Below are positions 10,319 to 34,541 of a stretch of 51,587 nt of DNA, one piece after another. The first letter of the stretch is position 1; every line of letters starts with the position of its first letter. The DNA is taken from the NCBI GenBank assembly GCA_021299335.1, contig JAJTGF010000003.1, positions 17,574-69,160 of the forward strand, read 5' to 3'. The DNA comes from Cryomorphaceae bacterium (GTDB lineage Bacteria; Bacteroidota; Bacteroidia; Flavobacteriales_D; Crocinitomicaceae). The notes below the pieces were generated by a model, which did not search any database, was not told the origin of the DNA, and saw only the letters and a program-made list of their open reading frames with translations. The translations under genes and the position numbers were made by a program.

Positions 10319-11212
10319 CTAGTTCTCCATTCGGTATTGTTTCTCCATTTCTCGGTCTTCTGGCGTGCTGTACACCCCGCATTTGGGTGGCGCTTCGAAT
10401 AACTTGATGACCTTAAATTGCGCCTGGATGGGCCAATAGGTAGAGCTGAACCAATGGATATTTGCGTTGAAACCTTGCCAAGGTGCGAGGGTTACAATTG
10501 GAACCGAAACTCCGGGAATCAAAATCCAGGCTTTATTCAAGCGAATACCAATGCCAATTTGGTAATTGAATTGAAACATTCCGGCAGCTAAATTAGGTTG
10601 AAATAATTGAGGTGCTTGATAAGCCGTAAATTGATTTTGGTAACCAAGTGTATCTTGTCGAATCTGAAAGTCATAATTGAGGCCTAAACTTTGGTCTAAA
10701 AAGTGCTTTCGCACTTTAACCACCACTTTTTTTCCAAAATAAATAAGGGAGTGCGCGCGGATACTACCATACAGATAACCGGTACGCAATTGACCTTCTC
10801 CTGTACTGCTGCTGTAAATTTCACCAAGCGCATTTTGGTTTTCTAAAAGTGTTGTCTCGAGGCCGTTGATCTGACGGTAACCGATCCCCCAGTCGAAGTA
10901 GTCCATGATGCGGCTTTTGCCAAGTGCTTTGATGGGCGTGCCCTTCCATTTTGGAAAATGAGCCAAACCAAATTCGGCATAAAACCCGAGTTTGGCTTCG
11001 GGAGTAATCGTGAAGTCTCCGCGGTCTACTTGGTTTTCGAAAATATCGCCTCTCAGTGGTTGATTGACAAAAGAGTAGGTAGGGCCCAAAGAGAATTGGT
11101 AGCCATGATTTCTGACTTGAAGGTAGTCGTTGCCTTTTTTCTTTGATTTTTCAAAGCCACCCTGAGACCACGCCCAAGTAGAAAAACAAAGGAAGAATAT
11201 CAGTATTCTCAT
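10319..11212 (-). CDS. Hypothetical outer-membrane beta-barrel-like protein
   Basis: A 297-residue exported protein. The signal peptide ('MRILIFFLCFSTWAWSQ') is followed by many alternating amphipathic segments with aromatic girdles ('YQFSLGPTYSFV', 'LGFYAEFGLAHF', 'YFDWGIGYRQI', 'RTGYLYGSIRAHSLIYF', 'MFQFNYQIGIGIRLNKAWILIPGVSVPI'), the usual look of an outer-membrane barrel. There is no SprF/PorP signature and no catalytic motif that I recognise. Its ATG overlaps the stop of kynurenine monooxygenase (ATGA), so it is translated in coupling with that gene, though no functional link is evident. The C-terminus is unusually charged and ends 'DREMEKQYRMEN'. Confidence 0.65.
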   Translation of the reverse strand: MRILIFFLCFSTWAWSQGGFEKSKKKGNDYLQVRNHGYQFSLGPTYSFVNQPLRGDIFENQVDRGDFTITPEAKLGFYAEFGLAHFPKWKGTPIKALGKSRIMDYFDWGIGYRQINGLETTLLENQNALGEIYSSSTGEGQLRTGYLYGSIRAHSLIYFGKKVVVKVRKHFLDQSLGLNYDFQIRQDTLGYQNQFTAYQAPQLFQPNLAAGMFQFNYQIGIGIRLNKAWILIPGVSVPIVTLAPWQGFNANIHWFSSTYWPIQAQFKVIKLFEAPPKCGVYSTPEDREMEKQYRMEN

Positions 11213-26181: not shown

Positions 26182-26254
26182 GGTACCTTAGCTCAGTTGG
26201 TAGAGCAAAGGACTGAAAATCCTTGTGTCCCTGGTTCGATTCCTGGAGGTACCA
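26182..26254 (+). tRNA. tRNA-Phe (anticodon GAA)
   Basis: A complete 73-base cloverleaf. Acceptor GGTACCT pairs with AGGTACC (26182-26188 with 26247-26253), the D arm is GCTC/GAGC, and the anticodon stem AAGGA/TCCTT has loop CTGAAAA with anticodon GAA at 26215-26217. The T arm is CCTGG/CCTGG... closing around TTCGATT, and the discriminator base is A. The 3' CCA is not encoded and must be added. Fifteen bases of its 3' end are repeated exactly at 29473-29487. Confidence 0.97.
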
Positions 26255-26255
26255 C
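26241..26255 (+). repeat. Direct repeat copy 1 (att-like, inside tRNA-Phe 3' end)
   Basis: TCCTGGAGGTACCAC covers the 3' side of the T arm and acceptor stem of tRNA-Phe, the classical target core of tyrosine-recombinase integration. The same 15 bases recur in direct orientation at 29473-29487. Confidence 0.7.
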
Positions 26256-26258
26256 TAC

Positions 26259-26288
26259 AAAAACCCCGAAGTTCGCTTTGGGGTTTTT
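26259..26288 (+). terminator. Rho-independent terminator after tRNA-Phe
   Basis: The inverted repeat AAAACCCCGAAG/CTTTGGGGTTTT surrounds a TTCG tetraloop and is followed by a T-run, immediately 3' of the tRNA. Confidence 0.88.
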
Positions 26289-26343
26289 TGTTTTGCAAAA
26301 AGTAGTTTTTGATCAGTCCTCGCTGCGCTCCCAAATAATTTAC

Positions 26344-26613
26344 CTATTCCATTTCGCCATCCCAAACAATAGGTTCTTTTGGAATCGTAATTTGGCCTCT
26401 AGTCATCACAAAGACTTCAGCGAAGCGCTTTTTCTTTTCTGGGCTCCAGGTTGCCATTATTTTGGCATATTCCGCGGTAAATTGTTCAATTTGAGCTAAT
26501 GTCGAGTCAGCGTCGTTCATCGCCGCTTTTGGTACAGAATTTTGTCCAAAGCAAAGTGAAGAAAGTAGGAGACAAATAAAAAGTGTCTTGAGATCAAGTT
26601 TATTTTTAATCAC
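26344..26613 (-). CDS. Small secreted hypothetical protein (89 residues)
   Basis: An 89-residue product with an N-terminal signal sequence ('LKTLFICLLLSSLCFGQ') and a charged mature part of about 65 residues ('DSTLAQIEQFTAEYAKIMAT', then 'SPEKKKRFAEVFVMTRGQIT'). The frame begins at GTG 26613 with an in-frame TAG six bases upstream, so no longer form is possible. I recognise no family. It lies between tRNA-Phe and the CotH-type gene, inside the interval bounded by the 15-base direct repeat, with 74 bases separating it from the CotH stop. Expression is not certain, but the signal peptide argues for a real gene. Confidence 0.55.
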   Translation of the reverse strand: MIKNKLDLKTLFICLLLSSLCFGQNSVPKAAMNDADSTLAQIEQFTAEYAKIMATWSPEKKKRFAEVFVMTRGQITIPKEPIVWDGEME

Positions 26614-26687
26614 TAGCTATAGTTTTTATAGTTCATAGCAATTAATGCGCTAAATTGATTTGGTTACATGTTTAAGTTTTACAAGGA

Positions 26688-29312
26688 TTAAAGTTTAATG
26701 ATTCCTTTTGCGATTTTCTTTCCTTTGAAAACACATTGTAACCAATAGGTGCCATGCGCAAGCCCAATCGTTTCTAAACTAAATGGCGATGCAGGTTGGC
26801 TCAGTTCCATAAGTTTTCTGCCGGTTGCATCAAAAAGCATAAAAGTAAATGCTTCATCCTGAGGAATGTTGTGTGTTATTACTGGGTTATTCACCGATGG
26901 ATTGGGTATGATATTGACCTGAATTTCTCCCTCTGTAACATAAATTAAAGCAGATGACTTAGCTATACATCCCAATGAATCAGTCACAATCAAGTTCACT
27001 GTATAATTACCCGGCGAAGCATATACGTGGTTGACTTGTTCTCCCTCACCCGTAAGGGTTTGATCGCCAAAACTCCATGCATATTGACTAGTAGGACCAT
27101 TTAAACTAGAAAATGTGTAGTTAACATCGCCAGAAAGGTGTGTTTGCAAGAAGGTAGAATCGGGTATGGACAAAGCCACTTGCATTGGAAATGATGCAAA
27201 GCAGCCATACATATCATTGAGTTCTAAGGTATATAAACCAGCCGAGTCGAGCACAATCGCTGGGGTTTCAGGCCCTGGTTTCCAATTGTACGAATAAGCA
27301 GGATCGTACGGCGCTTCATATATTGTCTTCAGGCAAACTAAGGTGTCTTCCGGAATTAAAATGGTTGGAAGAGCAGCGCCAAAAGGTGCTAAGGTCGAAT
27401 CCATCCATGCCAAGCGATCCTCCAAAAAGTTTTTCATATTGGTGATTTGATTGGAATAGGTGGAGTTACCTAAGGTTTGCCACACCGCAAAATTGCGAGT
27501 CGCAGGCCCTTGCAAAAGCAACCCAGATAAGCTATCCACGAAACCAAAAAAATTAGCCGTTTTGAATTCATCCTGACGCAAGGTTAGCCATCGACAAGCC
27601 AATTCGTGGCGATAAATGCTATCCGTATATAACTTCGACCACCAAAACGGAAAGGGCCAATATGGGTGCGTATTTTCCCATACCCAGCCAGAAGTAGGAT
27701 CACTGTCCATGGCGCGATCATAATCCCATGGCGGACCAATACACAACTTACCGCCGTCAGTATCTTTCTCCTTGTACATGTAGGTGCTGCGCCCATAACT
27801 GTCGTAATTCATGCTGAATTCGTTCACGATGAGAAAATCAATAAACGTACTGACATCAATCCAATTCCGATAACCGAGCGTCCCATTCATAAAACTGGTG
27901 GCATTTAAGGCATTCTCGAAGGAATCCACATACGTTTTGATATAATTAGCTTGCACGGTTGTTATGGAATCAGCTTTGGGGTAAACGTATTTAAACTCAA
28001 CGGGGTTCGAAGTAGTAGCACTATTTATGGGAGCATAAATAGAATTCCAACTTCCAGGATCGCCGTTGATGTTCATTTCTATGATGTAACCACCTGTTAG
28101 ATCACTTCCCGTTAAATCAATGGAAGATAATTTGGCGATATCTAAGCGATTTTTATCTCGCTTTACTTTCTCGGTTAAGGTGTAAACTCCAATGTACGTT
28201 CCATCTAAAAAGATTTCACACAATTTAGTTCTAGGTGCATAACGCCCCATGCGCCGAGCAAATTCGTAGGTAACTGTATTAATCAGCAAGGAGTTATCCA
28301 AGTACTCCGCTTTAAATATCCAATCGTTTTCTGAAGGAAGTCCCAATAGTGTCGTGTCTATTTTAGTTCCATTTGCATCAATCAAATCGAAATCATAGTT
28401 TTTCTTTGGATACATCGGACCTGTAAATCCCTGAAGCTCAGTCATTATATCCCCTTCGTAAGCAAAATTGGTTTGGTTAACATAATTCAACTGACCTAGA
28501 CCATTGTCAATAATTTCCATGTGAACCGGGACTTTTACGTCATTATTGATGGGATTACCCAATGAAGTGAGTTTGATAATTGGTAGCACACTAGACAGCG
28601 GGCCATCGTATGAAATCACAAATGGAATACCACTAGAACAGGGATTATTTCCATTTAAGCCAACTCTAATTATGTAGGTCTCACCAGCAGTTAAGGTAGC
28701 GTCTAAATCCGCTTGTAAACCGCAATTATTATTATCATCGTTGAAGTACAAAGAACCTGCTCCACTTCCCGCAAAGTCTACGCTGGCACAATCACCATAC
28801 ACCCATATTTTCGTGTCACAGGTACTTAGGTTACAGGTACTAATGGAATAGATTCCAGTAGAATCAGGGATAAATGAATAAAAAGTATTGGCCTGAGAGG
28901 CGAGCATTGAACCCAATGTGGTGGGCAAGGGATTCTCACAAATACTTCCCTGCGGACAATTAAAGGAATGCGTAGCGATAGTTTGAAATGCGCCACCTGT
29001 AGTCATTTGGACCCCATTCCAAAAAATACTGTACGATCCATTTCCGTATCCACAGCAAATACCATCACCATAACTATCGTAAATTTCAAATCGAACACAT
29101 GATGATGAATCCAAACAAACAGTATCAGAATTAGTCGTTCCAATCGCGACTTGTATATTATTTGCAATCAAGCTCCAGCTTGTTTCTCCCGGATACGTAT
29201 CAGGAATAATGTTGATGACTACCGGCCATTGCCCTGAAGCACATTGAGCCAATGAAATCGTATAAACCATACAAAAAGTCCAAGCAAAGAGTAAACATTT
29301 CATCAGTTTCAT
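26688..29312 (-). CDS. CotH-kinase family T9SS protein with PKD domain
   Basis: An 874-residue secreted multidomain protein. It has a signal peptide ('MKLMKCLLFAWTFCMVYTIS'), then a cysteine-rich segment ('FEIYDSYGDGICCGYGNGSY'), a pre-peptidase-like beta domain (about 130-245, 'YSFIPDSTGIYSISTC'), and a CotH domain (about 260-640). The CotH domain shows 'RMGRYAPRTKLCEIFLDGTY', 'GVYTLTEKVKRDKNRLDI' and the active-site-like 'GPPWDYDRAMDSD'. A PKD domain follows (about 735-795, 'YAWSFGDQTLTGEG', 'SPGNYTVNLIVTDSLGC'), and a T9SS type A tail ('INIIPNPSVNNPVI', 'GTYWLQCVF') ends the protein. CotH proteins are atypical kinases that phosphorylate spore-coat proteins in Bacillus; the substrate here is unknown. 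The start at 29312 has a second Met three codons on. Confidence 0.87.
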   Translation of the reverse strand: MKLMKCLLFAWTFCMVYTISLAQCASGQWPVVINIIPDTYPGETSWSLIANNIQVAIGTTNSDTVCLDSSSCVRFEIYDSYGDGICCGYGNGSYSIFWNGVQMTTGGAFQTIATHSFNCPQGSICENPLPTTLGSMLASQANTFYSFIPDSTGIYSISTCNLSTCDTKIWVYGDCASVDFAGSGAGSLYFNDDNNNCGLQADLDATLTAGETYIIRVGLNGNNPCSSGIPFVISYDGPLSSVLPIIKLTSLGNPINNDVKVPVHMEIIDNGLGQLNYVNQTNFAYEGDIMTELQGFTGPMYPKKNYDFDLIDANGTKIDTTLLGLPSENDWIFKAEYLDNSLLINTVTYEFARRMGRYAPRTKLCEIFLDGTYIGVYTLTEKVKRDKNRLDIAKLSSIDLTGSDLTGGYIIEMNINGDPGSWNSIYAPINSATTSNPVEFKYVYPKADSITTVQANYIKTYVDSFENALNATSFMNGTLGYRNWIDVSTFIDFLIVNEFSMNYDSYGRSTYMYKEKDTDGGKLCIGPPWDYDRAMDSDPTSGWVWENTHPYWPFPFWWSKLYTDSIYRHELACRWLTLRQDEFKTANFFGFVDSLSGLLLQGPATRNFAVWQTLGNSTYSNQITNMKNFLEDRLAWMDSTLAPFGAALPTILIPEDTLVCLKTIYEAPYDPAYSYNWKPGPETPAIVLDSAGLYTLELNDMYGCFASFPMQVALSIPDSTFLQTHLSGDVNYTFSSLNGPTSQYAWSFGDQTLTGEGEQVNHVYASPGNYTVNLIVTDSLGCIAKSSALIYVTEGEIQVNIIPNPSVNNPVITHNIPQDEAFTFMLFDATGRKLMELSQPASPFSLETIGLAHGTYWLQCVFKGKKIAKGIIKL

Positions 29313-29557
29313 AAGCTAACACCTTGAAACGAAGTTAGTCAAAATAAATTCATTCTTACCTTTGAGTGGGAGTTCGAAAGACTCGTGAATTACATTCCTT
29401 TGCGACAGCAAAAAGAATCGCAGGAAGGCCTTAAATTGCAAAGTTTTTAACCCTTTAAAGTAATGTATAAAGTCCTGGAGGTACCACATAAATAACGCAC
29501 CATGTAACCAAACCCACAAAATTTCTTTTGAAAGGAGTACACTTTAATCCCTCTCCT
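29313..29557. other. 245-base intergenic region with att-like repeat
   Basis: A non-coding stretch between the divergent CotH and GldL-like genes. It holds the second copy of the tRNA-Phe 3' end (29473-29487). I found no perfect TAnnTTTG box in the part upstream of the CotH gene. Confidence 0.6.
29473..29487 (+). repeat. Direct repeat copy 2 of tRNA-Phe 3' end (att-like)
   Basis: TCCTGGAGGTACCAC is identical to 26241-26255 and in the same orientation. The flanking bases differ on both sides and no other tRNA arm is present, so this is not a decayed complete tRNA copy. Confidence 0.7.
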
Positions 29558-30793
29558 ATGAAAAAGTTATTTGCCCTCGCCTCAGTTTCCCTTTTGTTTT
29601 TAGCCCATATTTTTAAGGCACTTCATTGGCCGGGTGCAGACCAATTGTTCATTTTGACTTTAGCACTGTTCCTTCCACTTTTTTATGTGCTTGATTTCAT
29701 CGGTGAATGGAAGTCTGGGGTCTCGAAATTGAGGGCTTTGCTATATTTTTTCGGTGTTTTGACACTCTCCCAAGGTTTGTTTTTTAAGCTCATGCATTGG
29801 CCAGGGGGTGATCAACTGCTCTTGATTTCATTGGGGCTTATTATACCAGGTTATTTGGTATTAAAGGCGATCCTTCAACCAAAGTTCAATAAGCTTGCAA
29901 ATTTCAGCGTTTTGCTCTTTATTTCGTTGTGCTGGACGAGTTTATTTCTGCTGTTGCATTTTCCTGGTAATGAGGGCTTTTTTGCAATTACGCTCTTTTT
30001 GACCATGCTTGTCATCCTTTATGAACTTGTTAAAAAGGAAGGTCAGCCTATTTTTCAATTGGTGAAACACAGACATTTGGTCAATGCAAGCGGCATCATT
30101 ACGTTTTTACTCCTGATGAATGCCAATAGAATGCCAATTCGAGTGCTGGAAACCGAAATGACACGTCATTTGACGCTACAAGAGCAAATTGACAATGAAA
30201 TTGCATTGGGTTCTTCACTCATCTCTACGCGCAATCAAAAATTAACAGTTCAACTTGAAGAGCAAACTGCAGACTTACTCAGACAAATTGACGACGTCAA
30301 GTTTGAGCTCATCTCCCAAGTTAACGGAAGAACCTGTTTGGGAAGCGCTCGTCCGTTGGATAAAATGGCAGTGCTTTGGTCCAAAAAAACAAAAGGTCAA
30401 GTAGGGATTGCGACACTCAACTTAGCGGCACTTGAGCAAAAAATGGCAATTGATGCCACAATGCACCAAATGATTGGTAGTGATTTCAAAGTACTAGACC
30501 AACGCGGCGCGGGGGTTAAAATCTGGAGCAGTTGGCAGAAATATCAAAGAAATGTATTGGCAATGGTGCAGCGCCAAAACCCTGCAGATTCCATAGCGCA
30601 ACGAAACCCTGCACTTACCTTGCAATCGATCATTCGCCGATGGGCCGCCAAAGAATATGCCGATTACCACGAACTCCACAATATCCATTGGGTCTCCAGA
30701 ACTTTTGACCACGCCACACTCGTTCAAGCGCTCATTAGACTTACCGAATTGCAATATGAAGTTGTGCGTTATAGGACGCTAGCTTTGAGCTAA
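29558..30793 (+). CDS. Membrane protein with three GldL-like HxPG motifs
   Basis: A 411-residue protein with six or so N-terminal membrane helices and a soluble C-terminal half. Helix pairs carry three related motifs: 'FKALHWPGADQLFI' (19-32), 'FKLMHWPGGDQLLL' (76-89) and 'LLLHFPGNEGFF' (131-142). They are spaced about 55 residues apart and resemble the N-terminal motif of GldL, the T9SS motor protein. A coiled-coil-prone segment follows ('LTVQLEEQTADLLRQIDDVK'), with a unique C-terminal domain. I use ATG 29558; the frame extends to a TTG at 29528 but the extra ten residues look untranslated. It is not GldL itself: no GldM neighbour, different length and tail. The function is unknown, possibly ion or proton related by analogy. 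Confidence 0.65.
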   Translation: MKKLFALASVSLLFLAHIFKALHWPGADQLFILTLALFLPLFYVLDFIGEWKSGVSKLRALLYFFGVLTLSQGLFFKLMHWPGGDQLLLISLGLIIPGYLVLKAILQPKFNKLANFSVLLFISLCWTSLFLLLHFPGNEGFFAITLFLTMLVILYELVKKEGQPIFQLVKHRHLVNASGIITFLLLMNANRMPIRVLETEMTRHLTLQEQIDNEIALGSSLISTRNQKLTVQLEEQTADLLRQIDDVKFELISQVNGRTCLGSARPLDKMAVLWSKKTKGQVGIATLNLAALEQKMAIDATMHQMIGSDFKVLDQRGAGVKIWSSWQKYQRNVLAMVQRQNPADSIAQRNPALTLQSIIRRWAAKEYADYHELHNIHWVSRTFDHATLVQALIRLTELQYEVVRYRTLALS

Positions 30794-30800
30794 TATTCAA

Positions 30801-33800
30801 TCACTCCCCATCCACCAAATGGATGAACCCATGCTTGTCTATGAGCGTGCCGCCGAGCATTTCGCCGCGCAGGCGATAGAAGAACACGCCGTCGGTGTGG
30901 AGTTGTCCGTTGAAGTCGTAGCCGTCCCAGACGGCGATGCCGGTTTGGTCTTTGAGTTCAAAAACGAGGTTGCCCCAGCGGTTCAGGATTTGAATGTCGT
31001 AGCTTTTGAAAGATGGATAAGGAAGGGTGACGATATCATTGTAACCATCTCCGTTGGGCGTAAAGACATTCGGTACCCAAATATCCGGATCTGAAACAAA
31101 GATGGTAATGAGTGCGGTGTCTATGCAACCCAAATTATCAGTGATCACCAACCCAATTTGTTGGGGCCCGCCTTGCGAGAAAGCAATGCTTTGGGCTGTG
31201 TTTTGAAAATAAAGATTGCTGCTATCAGGGAATATCCAGGTCCAGGTGGCGATCGGATTAAGGCTTGTGCTAGCGTCTGTTAAATTGACAACCTGATTGA
31301 TATTCGCATAAACCGGCGACGCATTAATTTGAGCGTTCATGCCACTGACACTCGCTGTTAACGGGTCGAGTAAATACAAGATTTGGCAACCAGCGGTATC
31401 GTAGACCGTTACACTCGGGTTGTAAGTGCCAGTGTTGGGGTAAAAATACGGGAAAGACAAACTGTCGGCCACCCAAACACCATTGCCTAAGTTCCAGCTC
31501 ACGGAGTCAATGTTTGATGGGTTTTGAATGGTGAAAAGCGCCCCTTGCGCACAAATAGTATTGTCTTGAATCCAAATTGGGGTGCCGAGTGGCCCGCCTA
31601 TGGAGACATAATTAGCGACGGTGGTATCGTCGGTGCAGCCAAATTCATCGGTTACGCTCATGGACAGCGTAAAGGTGCCGCTGGTCACTAATGTATTATC
31701 GGGGTTTTGTAAAATAGAGTTATTGCCGTTTCCAAAAGACCAGTTCCAATTGGTGATTGTTCCCATACTGCTGGAGGCGTCCGTGAAGTCGCAGAATAGC
31801 GGAGGGCAGCTGTAGTTGCCATTTACGTCAATGGCGGCACCTGAGAAGGAATAAGTGGGTGCAGCATGTGGTTGAGATACATAAATAGTTTGTAGGGTGG
31901 TATCGTTGCAGCCATTGCCGTCCGTAACAATCAAACTTAAAAGATGCGTTGAAAATAAACCGTTGTTGTTGGAGGGAAGATCAAGAATACACAAACTATC
32001 GCTACCAATATTATTCCCATTGACTGACCAAGCGTATTGCAAAGCAGCTTCACCGGTACTTAAACTCGCAATTACACTGCTGTCCAAGACGCAAATAACC
32101 GTATCGGCGCTTATGAGTGCTGTTGGTTTGGTTAAGGTAATTTGAACCGAAACAGGATTGGAAACACAACCATTTATATCTGTTGCGGTCAAGGTTGCGG
32201 TATAAACGCCATTGCCAACAAAAGTATGGTTTATGGCTTGATTGACATTAGTGGTGGTGACACTGGTATTGTTGTCAGAGAAGGTGGTATTGAAGGTTGC
32301 CAGCGGTAAGCCATTGACAATGCTGTAGCTCGTATTCGTAAAGCTCACTGGAAAGGGCGAACAACCAGCATAGGATGGCGCTAAAAGGCCCGCAACAGGT
32401 TTGTTGGCTACGAGAATAGTTTGGCTAGAGGTTGAGGAGCAGCCCACTGAATTGAAAACCAATAGATTGATGTTGTAGGTGCCGCTTGCCGGGTAGACAT
32501 AATTGACATTGGGTCCGTTATTGATTTGCTGCCCGTTGCCAAATGTATAAATCCAGGTGTTGACAGGATGCGCAGACCAAGTAGTGCTCTGATTGAACAA
32601 ACCAATGGCATCGCCTTTACAGATGGTATCATCAGGTAAAAGAAACGCTGATTGCAACTGAGAAATGGTAATGGCTAGCGTGATGCTATCCGAACAACCC
32701 GTCGTATAATTATGTACCACCTGCTCAATTTGATAAGTCCCGTAGTTGGCAAAAGCGTGCGACGTATTTCCACCATTGGGTAAATCGAGTTGGGAATTAT
32801 TGAAGTAAGTATTGGGCGAGTTGTCATTCCATTCGTAATGTAGGGCAACGCTATCTGAATCTTCACCTTCAATGGCTGTATTCTGAAACTGAAAGGTAAC
32901 AGGCAAACTCGTTGGGTTGCAGACTAAATAGGTATTGGGATTGAACTGCGCAATTGGGGCAAGAACGTACAGCACCGAATCTAGTTCTAAGGAATCGATA
33001 CAGCCCCTGAAGTTAACGTAAAGCGTGACGTCAACCCACCCCGTATCTTGTGAAAACTGGAAGGTAGGGTCGTCTTGTGTACTGATGCCTTGAGAGAAAT
33101 CCCAGAGATAGGAAATCTCAGAGCTATCGTAAGGAACCGAGATATAAAATTCAGATTCGAATTCGACATCTGTATTGGCACAAGTGATGTTGGGATCCCA
33201 ACTGAAATCTACGGAATCGATAGACCCAACAGTAACATATGGCGTTTTGATTATGGTGTCTGTACAACCCGAAGCGGTGGTGATGATGAGCGAAACATTG
33301 TAAAGCCCCACGCCATAGGTTTGTGGTGGAGGGACCTGCCCACTGTAAGTTTGTCCGTTGCCAAAGTTCCATTGCCAAGAGACAATTGGGTTACTTGGTG
33401 TGTAGGAAGTATCGATGAACTGTACAGTAAAAGGTGCACAGCCGCCTGTGTCGAGCGCATAGAAACCAGCTTCTACAGGTGTAATTTCGATGTAATCTTG
33501 GAGTGTTTTGGTACCTGAACAACCCGCGCTCGAGGTGAAAGTGAGGCTGACATCAAATAGACCACTTGTCTGATATAAGTGAGCTGGTGGGTTAGGGCCT
33601 GTATAGGTTTGCCCATCTCCAAAATTCCAGACGTAGGTGCCGGCGAGGTTGGTGGTATTGAAAAATTGGATGCTACCTGGGGCGCAGTTGGCGGTGGGGT
33701 TTGCATAAAAAGAGGGGATGGTATTGGCTTGCACCACAATTTGTTGGGTGGTGCTTCCCGAACACCCAGAGTTGGTGTTTTGGGAAGTTAAGGAAACCGA

Positions 33801-34541
33801 ATATGTTCCGGGAGAATTATAAGTAACATTCGGATTTTCGGCATTGCTCTGTCCTGCACTGCCAAAATTCCAACTCCAGGCGTTTGCGCCGGCAGTGGAG
33901 TTGTCTTGAAAAGCAATAGGTTGGCCAACGCAGCCCACGGCCGGGGCGGTAATACCTGCCTGAAAGTTGGATACAACAATTGGTTGGGTGAGGGAATTGA
34001 TACAACCTGTGTTGTTGTTGGTTACGGTCAGGACAACCTGAAAAGTTCCTTGGCTGTTATAGGTAATACTCGGCGGGGTATATTGGCTGGACGTTTGTGA
34101 ATTTCCGAAGTTCCAAGCCTGCGAAAAATTAGCACCTTGTGACGACGAATTGCTGAAACTCAAGGTAAGCGGAACGGTACAGCCCAAGCCATTGGCGCTA
34201 AAATTGACATTTGGCAGTGGATTAACGGTGATGTAAGCCGGTTTGATTTCTGCATCGGCAACACCATTCGCATTGGTGGCTACAAGTGTGATGGTAAATG
34301 TTCCGGCCGTGCTAAATGCGTGGGTAGCGTTGGTGGTTGTGGCAGCGTTACCATCGCCAAAATCCCATTGATAAGAACTCAGGGCTGGGCCACCGTTGGC
34401 ACTAGAAGTATTGGTGAAATTGACGTTTTGTCCTACGCAAACCGTGAGCGGATTTGCCGTGAAGTTGGCAATCGGGCTTTGGGCATATAGATACGAAGCT
34501 AAGCAGCTGATGCTGACCAGCAAGATACGTAGGTAGGTCAT
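30801..34541 (-). CDS. Giant PKD-repeat T9SS protein with type B sorting domain
   Basis: A 1246-residue secreted surface protein. It has a signal peptide ('MTYLRILLVSISCLASYLYA'), then about 13 consecutive PKD-like Ig folds of 75-95 residues, recognisable by 'W-x-F-G-D/N-G' turns ('YQWDFGDGNA', 'YVWNFGDGQTY', 'WQWNFGNGQTY', 'WNWSFGNGNN') and 'GTYxVxLxV' strands. Several repeats are degenerate. The last 90 residues are a CHU_C/gliding-associated type B sorting domain ('VPNVFTPNGDGYNDIV', 'LNRWGNLVFE', 'WDGYDFNGQLHTDGVFFYRL'). Type B substrates are exported by T9SS and usually handled with SprF-like partners, none of which is adjacent. It is likely an adhesin or matrix protein. It follows the DUF4340-like gene by 39 bases, with an inverted repeat in the gap. 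Confidence 0.9.
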   Translation of the reverse strand: MTYLRILLVSISCLASYLYAQSPIANFTANPLTVCVGQNVNFTNTSSANGGPALSSYQWDFGDGNAATTTNATHAFSTAGTFTITLVATNANGVADAEIKPAYITVNPLPNVNFSANGLGCTVPLTLSFSNSSSQGANFSQAWNFGNSQTSSQYTPPSITYNSQGTFQVVLTVTNNNTGCINSLTQPIVVSNFQAGITAPAVGCVGQPIAFQDNSTAGANAWSWNFGSAGQSNAENPNVTYNSPGTYSVSLTSQNTNSGCSGSTTQQIVVQANTIPSFYANPTANCAPGSIQFFNTTNLAGTYVWNFGDGQTYTGPNPPAHLYQTSGLFDVSLTFTSSAGCSGTKTLQDYIEITPVEAGFYALDTGGCAPFTVQFIDTSYTPSNPIVSWQWNFGNGQTYSGQVPPPQTYGVGLYNVSLIITTASGCTDTIIKTPYVTVGSIDSVDFSWDPNITCANTDVEFESEFYISVPYDSSEISYLWDFSQGISTQDDPTFQFSQDTGWVDVTLYVNFRGCIDSLELDSVLYVLAPIAQFNPNTYLVCNPTSLPVTFQFQNTAIEGEDSDSVALHYEWNDNSPNTYFNNSQLDLPNGGNTSHAFANYGTYQIEQVVHNYTTGCSDSITLAITISQLQSAFLLPDDTICKGDAIGLFNQSTTWSAHPVNTWIYTFGNGQQINNGPNVNYVYPASGTYNINLLVFNSVGCSSTSSQTILVANKPVAGLLAPSYAGCSPFPVSFTNTSYSIVNGLPLATFNTTFSDNNTSVTTTNVNQAINHTFVGNGVYTATLTATDINGCVSNPVSVQITLTKPTALISADTVICVLDSSVIASLSTGEAALQYAWSVNGNNIGSDSLCILDLPSNNNGLFSTHLLSLIVTDGNGCNDTTLQTIYVSQPHAAPTYSFSGAAIDVNGNYSCPPLFCDFTDASSSMGTITNWNWSFGNGNNSILQNPDNTLVTSGTFTLSMSVTDEFGCTDDTTVANYVSIGGPLGTPIWIQDNTICAQGALFTIQNPSNIDSVSWNLGNGVWVADSLSFPYFYPNTGTYNPSVTVYDTAGCQILYLLDPLTASVSGMNAQINASPVYANINQVVNLTDASTSLNPIATWTWIFPDSSNLYFQNTAQSIAFSQGGPQQIGLVITDNLGCIDTALITIFVSDPDIWVPNVFTPNGDGYNDIVTLPYPSFKSYDIQILNRWGNLVFELKDQTGIAVWDGYDFNGQLHTDGVFFYRLRGEMLGGTLIDKHGFIHLVDGE

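What the first reader, a model, noticed from the sequence alone, without database searches (positions are those of the whole stretch)
26241..29487. 15-base direct repeat of tRNA-Phe 3' end bounds a possible mini genomic islet
Seen directly: TCCTGGAGGTACCAC at the 3' end of tRNA-Phe (26241-26255) recurs in direct orientation at 29473-29487, with unlike flanks. The 3.2-kb interval holds a small secreted protein and a CotH/PKD T9SS protein, while both outer flanks are housekeeping or conserved-type genes. Known: tyrosine recombinases integrate at tRNA 3' ends and leave exactly this kind of duplicated core. Inferred: the interval is a small or decayed integrated element that delivered a T9SS surface protein, and its integrase is lost or supplied in trans. 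By rough arithmetic, a chance 15-base match in a window this size is about 1 in 10,000.
Basis: partly seen in the sequence, partly recalled or inferred. Interest (0 to 1): 0.7.

Follow-up and report, generated by a model that had tools for sequence, protein, structure and literature searches.

The report
Borrowed surface-protein gene beside tRNA-Phe
In an uncultured lake bacterium, a surface-protein gene borrowed from a distant cousin sits in a small patchwork next to a tRNA gene, and the 15-letter repeat that was noticed is a scar near one end of the borrowed piece, not the mark of a simple insertion into the tRNA gene.

Summary
The 15-mer repeat is real, occurs nowhere else in the 1.8-Mb assembly and is not chance (expected 1.9e-5 per window). 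Ten relatives have an empty site (next gene 39-59 bp after tRNA-Phe); the islet runs to about 30800. It has two layers: an older divergent pair (small secreted protein, GldL/GldM-like protein), present without CotH in G080 and G102, and a 2,830-bp insert, 26671-29500, that split the palindrome between them. The insert holds CotH plus upstream region, horizontally acquired: synonymous differences 0.15-0.28 per site, against 0.57 or more in neighbours. The second 15-mer lies 13 bp inside the insert's right end, 6 bp beyond donor homology. tRNA-Phe 3'-end copies lie downstream of the gene in 12 of 72 genus genomes, in 9 around a tiny GIY-YIG gene; small GIY-YIG genes sit at tRNAs elsewhere in the order (22 of 30 loci). 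Mechanism (cargo carrying a tRNA-end scar) is inferred.

The parts
26182..26255 (+). tRNA-Phe (gaa)
26241..26255 (+). 15-mer copy 1 = last 15 nt of tRNA-Phe
26259..26288 (+). terminator-like hairpin, resembling the one after tRNA-Phe in empty-site relatives
   Evidence: (I12)
26344..26613 (-). small secreted-looking protein 'sec89' (89 aa, GTG start); no Pfam family
26659..26670 (.). left half of the split sec89/GldL-like intergenic palindrome (TTTGGTTACATG)
   Evidence: I14
26671..29500 (.). younger insert (2,830 bp) carrying CotH and the second 15-mer
   Evidence: joined flanks align to intact intergenic regions of G102 and G080
26682..29466 (.). segment homologous to donor-type genomes (G075, G079 from 26682; G104 to 29466)
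26688..29312 (-). CotH-kinase/PKD/T9SS-tail protein, 874 aa
29473..29487 (+). 15-mer copy 2, 13 bp from the right edge of the insert
29501..29512 (.). right half of the split palindrome (CATGTAACCAAA)
   Evidence: I14
29558..30793 (+). accessory GldL/GldM-like protein (weak: GldL_N E 0.003, GldM_1st E 0.015)
30801..34541 (-). PKD/CHU_C protein that directly follows tRNA-Phe plus terminator in ten relatives

Best explanation
A small composite ('additive') flexible islet without a recombinase gene of its own, downstream of tRNA-Phe, built in at least two steps. SHOWN: (1) in a few lineages a divergent sec89 / GldL-GldM-like pair lies between tRNA-Phe and the PKD gene; ten relatives have nothing there. 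(2) In G000 and G020 a CotH gene, closest to those of a distant clade of the same genus, sits inside that pair; in G000 it split the intergenic palindrome (insert 26671-29500). (3) The insert's right end carries the last 15 nt of tRNA-Phe, starting 6 bp after homology to a donor-type genome stops. INFERRED: CotH travelled as cargo that had earlier been joined to a tRNA-Phe 3' end (as the cargo in G024 is) and reached its place by uptake and recombination or end-joining outside the tRNA, not by site-specific integration at this tRNA-Phe. The 15-mer is a scar carried with the cargo.
For: Empty site: PKD stop 39-59 bp after tRNA-Phe in 10 relatives. Same pair without CotH and with other cargo in G080 and G102. 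Joined flanks align to those intact intergenic regions, both halves of the palindrome recovered. HGT: CotH pS 0.15 (G020) and 0.20-0.28 (G075, G079, G104, G105), against 0.57-0.73 (G020) and 0.75 or more for lspA, DUF5686, lptC, OMP, coaX, PKD; the trees disagree. Donor homology runs to 29466 in G104 and 29462 in G105. tRNA-Phe 3'-end copies of 15-19 nt lie downstream on the same strand in 12 of 72 genomes, none of 10 nt or more on the reverse strand or upstream. G024: cargo, then an 18-nt tRNA end, then a terminator, no GIY-YIG between. G020's right junction keeps AAAAACCCC, which scores best (10.5; shuffled mean 3.4, s.d. 1.5) with G000's own sequence after tRNA-Phe.
Against: No genome was found in which CotH itself lies next to a tRNA-Phe 3' end outside this locus; in four donor-type genomes it is on another contig than tRNA-Phe. 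G020 shares the left junction but has a sec89-like fragment in place of the 15-mer, so the two right ends need a second event. The match in G020 is short and A/C-rich, and G029 ties with it. The right junction with the 15-mer rests on one draft assembly; no reads could be checked. CotH divergence between G000 and G020 (pS 0.15, neighbours 0.57-0.73) implies transfer after their split, so one shared insertion needs a later transfer between the lineages.
Confidence: 0.55

Rival explanations
1. One reading: a tyrosine recombinase, lost or acting in trans, integrated an element at the tRNA-Phe 3' end; the second 15-mer is attR.
For: Exact tRNA 3' end in direct orientation; no integrase in the interval but three PF00589 genes in the genome, one close to tRNA-Pro; similar copies downstream of tRNA-Phe in 11 other genomes.
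Against: sec89 left of CotH belongs to an older pair found without CotH in G080 and G102; insert edges are 26671/29500; the terminator is still at the tRNA; G020 has CotH here without the 15-mer.
Confidence: 0.15
2. Templated filler: when the CotH fragment was joined, repair copied 15 nt (perhaps up to 24 imperfect nt) from the tRNA-Phe end 3.2 kb away into the junction.
For: Copy sits exactly at a junction; the template is in the same locus; the repeat runs on imperfectly to 24 nt.
Against: The copy ends at the tRNA 3' terminus, as the copies in 11 other genomes do, which filler has no reason to do; possible trace of the same sequence type in G020 (weak).
Confidence: 0.2
3. The second 15-mer is the relic of a GIY-YIG mini-element at tRNA-Phe, like those in nine other genomes, that was later overwritten by CotH.
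For: Such elements end with the same tRNA-Phe 3' end; donor-type G075 has one and G104 a remnant.
Against: No palindrome before the copy; no small GIY-YIG in G000; none reported at E 1e-6 or better in G020, G022, G011 or G072; copy lies inside the CotH insert.
Confidence: 0.07
4. Chance match.
For: One chance copy does exist in the genus (G060, inside a 4081-aa ORF).
Against: Expected 5.5e-7 on this strand in 3.3 kb; 12 of 72 genomes have such copies downstream, none of 10 nt or more elsewhere.
Confidence: 0.01

Closest known systems
Additive flexible genomic islands at tRNA-Lys in freshwater 'Ca. Methylopumilus' (PMC10872708, passages read)
   Same: Variable cargo (330 bp-42 kb) next to a tRNA, with direct repeats of the tRNA's last 20 nt in varying number; freshwater, genome-reduced host.
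   Different: Different phylum and tRNA. Here the one extra copy sits inside a secondary insert rather than at the edge of the island, and in relatives most copies are tied to GIY-YIG mini-genes.
Tycheposons (described in passages of PMC10872708; original paper not seen)
   Same: tRNA-anchored cargo islands in aquatic bacteria.
   Different: The ones described there contain a tyrosine recombinase (xerD); none lies in this islet.
Classical tRNA-integrating elements leaving partial tRNA copies (PMC9897764, abstract and passages read)
   Same: A partial tRNA 3' end as a by-product.
   Different: No integrase here, and the geometry does not fit a single integration.
SegB-type free-standing GIY-YIG homing endonucleases at phage tRNA genes (PMC13096335 and PMC2988022, passages read)
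   Same: GIY-YIG gene beside tRNA genes; tandem amplification through short homologies at tRNA gene and endonuclease gene.
   Different: Chromosomal ORFs of mostly 75-110 aa in Flavobacteriales, several with a tRNA copy whose loop is a palindrome; no PHROG family matched two of them. This concerns the relatives: none was found in G000.

Membership tests
tRNA-integrated genomic islet (tyrosine-recombinase type) | direct repeat of the tRNA 3' end, same orientation | tested here: met
tRNA-integrated genomic islet (tyrosine-recombinase type) | repeats at both edges of the inserted unit; original downstream sequence follows the second repeat | tested here: not met
   insert edges 26671/29500, older islet to about 30800; terminator still at the tRNA
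tRNA-integrated genomic islet (tyrosine-recombinase type) | integrase gene in the element | tested here: not met
   the large ORFs of 26256-30800 are sec89, CotH and the GldL-like gene; the three PF00589 genes are on other contigs
tRNA-integrated genomic islet (tyrosine-recombinase type) | empty site in relatives | tested here: met
tRNA-integrated genomic islet (tyrosine-recombinase type) | excised circle or mobility | not testable with these tools
   needs cells or reads
additive flexible genomic island | variable cargo at the same site in related genomes | tested here: met
   CotH (G000, G020), GldM-like + 270 aa (G102), 196 aa + 705 aa (G080, contig break), small ORF (G028):
additive flexible genomic island | cargo acquired horizontally | tested here: met
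   shown for CotH only
additive flexible genomic island | recurring tRNA-end repeats between cargo units | tested here: inconclusive
   one extra copy here, at an insert end; clearer in G024
tRNA-linked GIY-YIG mini-element | small GIY-YIG ORF at the tRNA | tested here: not met
   none at this locus; G000's only PF01541 match is in a 452-aa frame on another contig (assembly 81.6% complete)
tRNA-linked GIY-YIG mini-element | palindrome before the tRNA-end copy | tested here: not met

The most novel reading that the evidence does not exclude
The tRNA-end scars in this genus, including this one, go back to an undescribed family of recombinase-free mini-elements: GIY-YIG endonucleases of mostly 75-110 aa that live at tRNA genes (Phe, Met, Arg, Asn, Asp, Ala, Leu) across Flavobacteriales, many paired with a copy of part of that tRNA (in the Phe, Asn and Arg types with a loop replaced by a palindrome), and able to move neighbouring cargo such as CotH by break-induced recombination at tRNA ends, even into genomes that do not hold the endonuclease.
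Probability: 0.15. Interest if true: 0.75.

Novelty: new variant of a known kind. Interest (0 to 1): 0.5.

Why it matters
A tRNA-end repeat, usually read as an integrase footprint, can ride inside transferred cargo and end up away from the edge of an island; repeat-based island callers would draw the wrong interval here. The case documents transfer of a surface (T9SS) protein gene between distant clades of a lake-bacterium genus. It also led to many small GIY-YIG genes at tRNA genes across an order, a pattern that my searches of the open-access library did not show described for bacterial chromosomes and that might explain how tRNA-end repeats arise without an integrase.

Tried and rejected
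Chance: rejected. A classical attL/attR islet: does not fit. A second copy in G060, 39 kb away: inside a 4081-aa ORF, chance. Extra copies in G023 and G080: at contig ends, read as assembly overlaps of one tRNA gene. CotH as a slowly evolving core gene: rejected by synonymous divergence. GIY-YIG relic at this locus: no ORF, no palindrome. Viral carriage of one GIY-YIG protein: no relative confirmed in viral contigs, no PHROG for two proteins. Tracing the nucleotides after copy 2 to one genome's tRNA-Phe flank: suggestive, not specific. Two MAFFT alignments of the junctions were too gappy and were replaced by local BLAST alignments. IQ-TREE gave no tree (thread setting); the trees quoted are FastTree. 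Rfam added nothing beyond the tRNA and one match far below its gathering score. Seven literature searches were answered; of four papers opened, three were seen in passages only and one in abstract and passages.

Names taken from memory and from no call: lspA, DUF5686, lptC and OMP for left-flank genes; 'sec89' is my own label; 'caspase-like' and 'collagen-like' in my notes for G102 and G080 cargo; att terminology.

Full report
OBSERVATION. ARAGORN places tRNA-Phe at 26182-26255. TCCTGGAGGTACCAC, its last 15 nt, is found exactly at 26241-26255 and 29473-29487 on the same strand, and no third site in the window has up to 3 mismatches (that relaxed search expects 0.49 matches by chance). In the genome that holds the window (G000: 1,805,076 bp, 107 contigs, 81.6% complete) it occurs exactly twice, both here; one further site has 2 mismatches. 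A first-order Markov estimate expects 1.9e-5 exact copies per window and 5.5e-7 on this strand in 3.3 kb. Across 86 genomes of the genus the exact 15-mer is found in 53, the exact reversed string in none.

EMPTY SITE AND TRUE EXTENT. I fetched tRNA-Phe loci from relatives and mapped the window's genes on them. In ten relatives (G008, G010, G011, G013, G016, G022, G027, G034, G062, G076) the C-terminal end of the PKD gene lies 39-59 bp after the tRNA 3' end, past a terminator-like hairpin where I looked. G028 has 443 bp there with another small ORF. Nine other genomes, with PKD at 58-60% identity (G002, G015, G031, G035, G077, G078, G084, G094, G101), have 277-3454 bp between tRNA-Phe and PKD.

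TWO LAYERS. The GldL-like protein has matches at 57-75% identity only in G080, G020 and G102 of 86 genomes; five more have 27-35%. In G102 and G080 it is paired divergently with a homologue of the small secreted protein (sec89; 106 bp between the starts in G102), with an intergenic palindrome GTTACAACTGTAAC. Neither genome has a match to the CotH block. Other cargo lies on the tRNA side: in G102 a 327-aa protein with a GldM second domain (E 9e-6) and a 270-aa protein; in G080 196-aa and 705-aa ORFs, with a contig break. In the window the two halves of the palindrome stand at 26659-26670 and 29501-29512 (I14), and the joined flanks align to the intact intergenic regions of G102 and G080. The younger insert is therefore 26671-29500, 2,830 bp. 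Its left edge is 415 bp from the tRNA. Whether CATG on both sides is a target duplication or just the split palindrome cannot be told.

CotH IS HORIZONTALLY ACQUIRED. The CotH block matches G020 at 94.6% and G075, G079, G104, G105 at 90-93%, and a G006 contig-end fragment at 93% (misbinning of that contig was not excluded). Of 86 genomes, 33, G000 included, have any match at E 1e-10 or better. Synonymous differences per site: CotH 0.15 to G020, 0.20 to G075 and G079, 0.26 and 0.28 to G104 and G105; lspA, DUF5686, lptC, OMP, coaX and PKD 0.57-0.73 to G020 and 0.75 or more to the others (PKD there is a poor, partial match); the GldL-like gene 0.75 to G020. A FastTree of CotH groups G000+G020 (0.999) with G075+G079 (0.952), inside the donor-type group; the tree of three flanking proteins puts that group far from G000 and G020, and does not join G000 with G020 (several supports in that part are 0.5-0.6). 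In G104, G105, G075 and G079 CotH lies on a different contig from tRNA-Phe. G079 shares CotH but not the upstream neighbour of G104, so the gene has changed place there too.

WHERE THE SECOND 15-MER SITS. Homology to G104 continues through the CotH upstream region to 29466 and to G105 to 29462; the 15-mer starts at 29473 and ends 13 bp before the insert's right edge. The copy thus belongs to the end of the imported piece. It is not followed by terminator plus PKD gene, as it would be after integration at the tRNA. AAAAACCCC scores best with the sequence after G000's own tRNA-Phe (10.5; shuffled mean 3.4, s.d. 1.5), but G029 ties and the mean over the genomes compared is 6.0, so the hint that the ancestor had a tRNA end plus terminator start there is weak.

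THE WIDER PATTERN. For 72 genus genomes with an ARAGORN tRNA-Phe (73 rows, G080 twice; G023 and G103 have under 25 bp of downstream sequence, several others under 1 kb) I looked for the genome's own tRNA-Phe 3' suffix in up to 5 kb downstream and up to 5 kb upstream (about 1 kb or less upstream in many). Copies of 15-19 nt downstream on the same strand are present in 12 of 72: G000, G015 (two), G024, G075, G077, G081, G084, G086, G087 (three), G093, G096, G104. Shorter downstream same-strand hits: 11 nt in G024 and G061, 10 in G034, 9 in G011. On the reverse strand there was one of 9 nt (G010), upstream none of 9 or more. In 9 of the 12 (all but G000, G024, G104) a small GIY-YIG ORF (81 aa where translated; PF01541, E 1e-17 for that of G096) lies between tRNA and copy, and just before the copy the T-loop of the tRNA sequence is replaced by a palindrome such as CCGCCGCGGCGG. 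G104 has the palindrome and the copy without an ORF. G024 is the closest parallel to the window: the copies are 839 bp apart, with a 132-aa ORF between them, an 18-nt tRNA end and a terminator, no GIY-YIG. G036 has a small GIY-YIG ORF after tRNA-Phe but no copy in the 950 bp available.

SMALL GIY-YIG GENES AT OTHER tRNAs. Of ten further small GIY-YIG loci that I had picked, partly because they were tandem or near a tRNA, eight have an ARAGORN tRNA in the fetched stretch and one more has tRNA-Asn-like pieces. A less selected set, 40 more small hits from the listed part (a capped list), gives 13 of 40 within 400 bp of a tRNA; of the 27 others, the 16 loci L254-L269 have no tRNA in the fetched stretch and look like a separate group. 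In a search of 199 genomes of the order with one tRNA-Phe-type protein, 83 matched; of the 30 loci returned (the best matches, so not a random sample) 22 have a tRNA within 400 bp, every tRNA call being on the ORF's strand; 7 of the 30 are from the window's genus (7 of 7 near a tRNA), 23 from others (15 of 23). In many of them a piece of sequence that looks like part of the tRNA is repeated across the ORF, and in Asn and Arg types the broken copy carries a palindrome in another loop. With about 50 tRNA genes per genome roughly 1% would be expected by position alone (my estimate, not computed). G000 itself shows no small GIY-YIG, so this is context and is not shown to be the cause here.

MECHANISM. 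Shown: composite islet, empty sites, HGT of CotH, insert edges, position of the scar. Inferred: the cargo was once joined to a tRNA-Phe end and came in by recombination or end-joining away from the tRNA. Not shown: which enzyme, if any. G000 has three tyrosine-recombinase genes (frames of 307, 308 and 444 aa); the third is close to a tRNA-Pro, so supply in trans remains possible.

LITERATURE. The nearest published architecture that I saw is the additive island of freshwater 'Ca. Methylopumilus', preceded by repeats of the last 20 nt of tRNA-Lys (PMC10872708, passages). SegB of T-even phages is a GIY-YIG enzyme at tRNA genes that drives tandem amplification (PMC13096335, passages; PMC2988022, passages). 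A paper on tRNA fragments in prokaryotes has no occurrence of 'endonuclease' in its main text (PMC9897764, abstract and passages). Searches listed no paper whose title or abstract start concerns GIY-YIG genes at chromosomal tRNA genes of Bacteroidota; the lists are capped and the library holds open-access papers only.

LIMITS. Most genomes used are draft assemblies, many incomplete; the exact right junction rests on one assembly. The identity of G020:C4 with record CAMDFN010000004.1, G104:C13 with CANHOA010000013.1, G105:C5 with CANJLG010000005.1 and G079:C56 with JAPLEV010000020.1 is inferred from equal contig lengths. The titles call these MAGs Flavobacteriales or Flavobacteriia, one bears a cultured species' name that I think implausible.

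Noticed in passing
L144, L145, L146, L147, L118, L230-L233 (downstream of tRNA-Phe): Mini-elements of about 310-380 bp: terminator, GIY-YIG ORF, palindrome in place of the T-loop, tRNA-Phe 3' end, then another terminator-like stretch; two copies in G015, three tRNA ends in G087.
   Followed up: yes
L220-L228, L254-L293, L303-L327: Small GIY-YIG ORFs next to tRNA-Met, Arg, Asn, Asp, Ala, Leu and Pro in this genus or elsewhere in the order, often with repeated tRNA pieces; exact direct repeats of 322 and 426 bp in two G071 loci.
   Followed up: partly
L225, L224: Broken tRNA copies with a palindrome in different loops: Asn anticodon arm TCCCGCACGTGCGGGA, Arg D-loop CCTGTCTACCGACAGG.
   Followed up: partly
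window 29558-30793: The 'GldL-like' protein looks like a GldL N-terminus joined to a GldM N-terminal domain (weak, E 0.003 and 0.015); G102 carries a GldM second-domain protein beside it. Possibly an accessory T9SS motor-like set.
   Followed up: partly
L254-L269: A group of small GIY-YIG ORFs (many with MYIL..C near the start) without a tRNA nearby, most with short repeats close by.
   Followed up: no
L333 354-1992: Tyrosine-recombinase ORF (438 aa) close to tRNA-Pro in G000, perhaps a separate tRNA-integrated element.
   Followed up: no
L129 1-540 (G006:C40): CotH C-terminal fragment at 93% on a contig end in another genome of the genus, in another context.
   Followed up: partly
L113 about 10490-10520, and L234 about 800 bp after tRNA-Phe: Altered tRNA-Phe ends (GATTCCCGGAGGTACCAC) after a near-palindrome in G024 and G061; G061 has a 119-aa ORF before it whose start resembles the ORF in G028.
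   Followed up: partly
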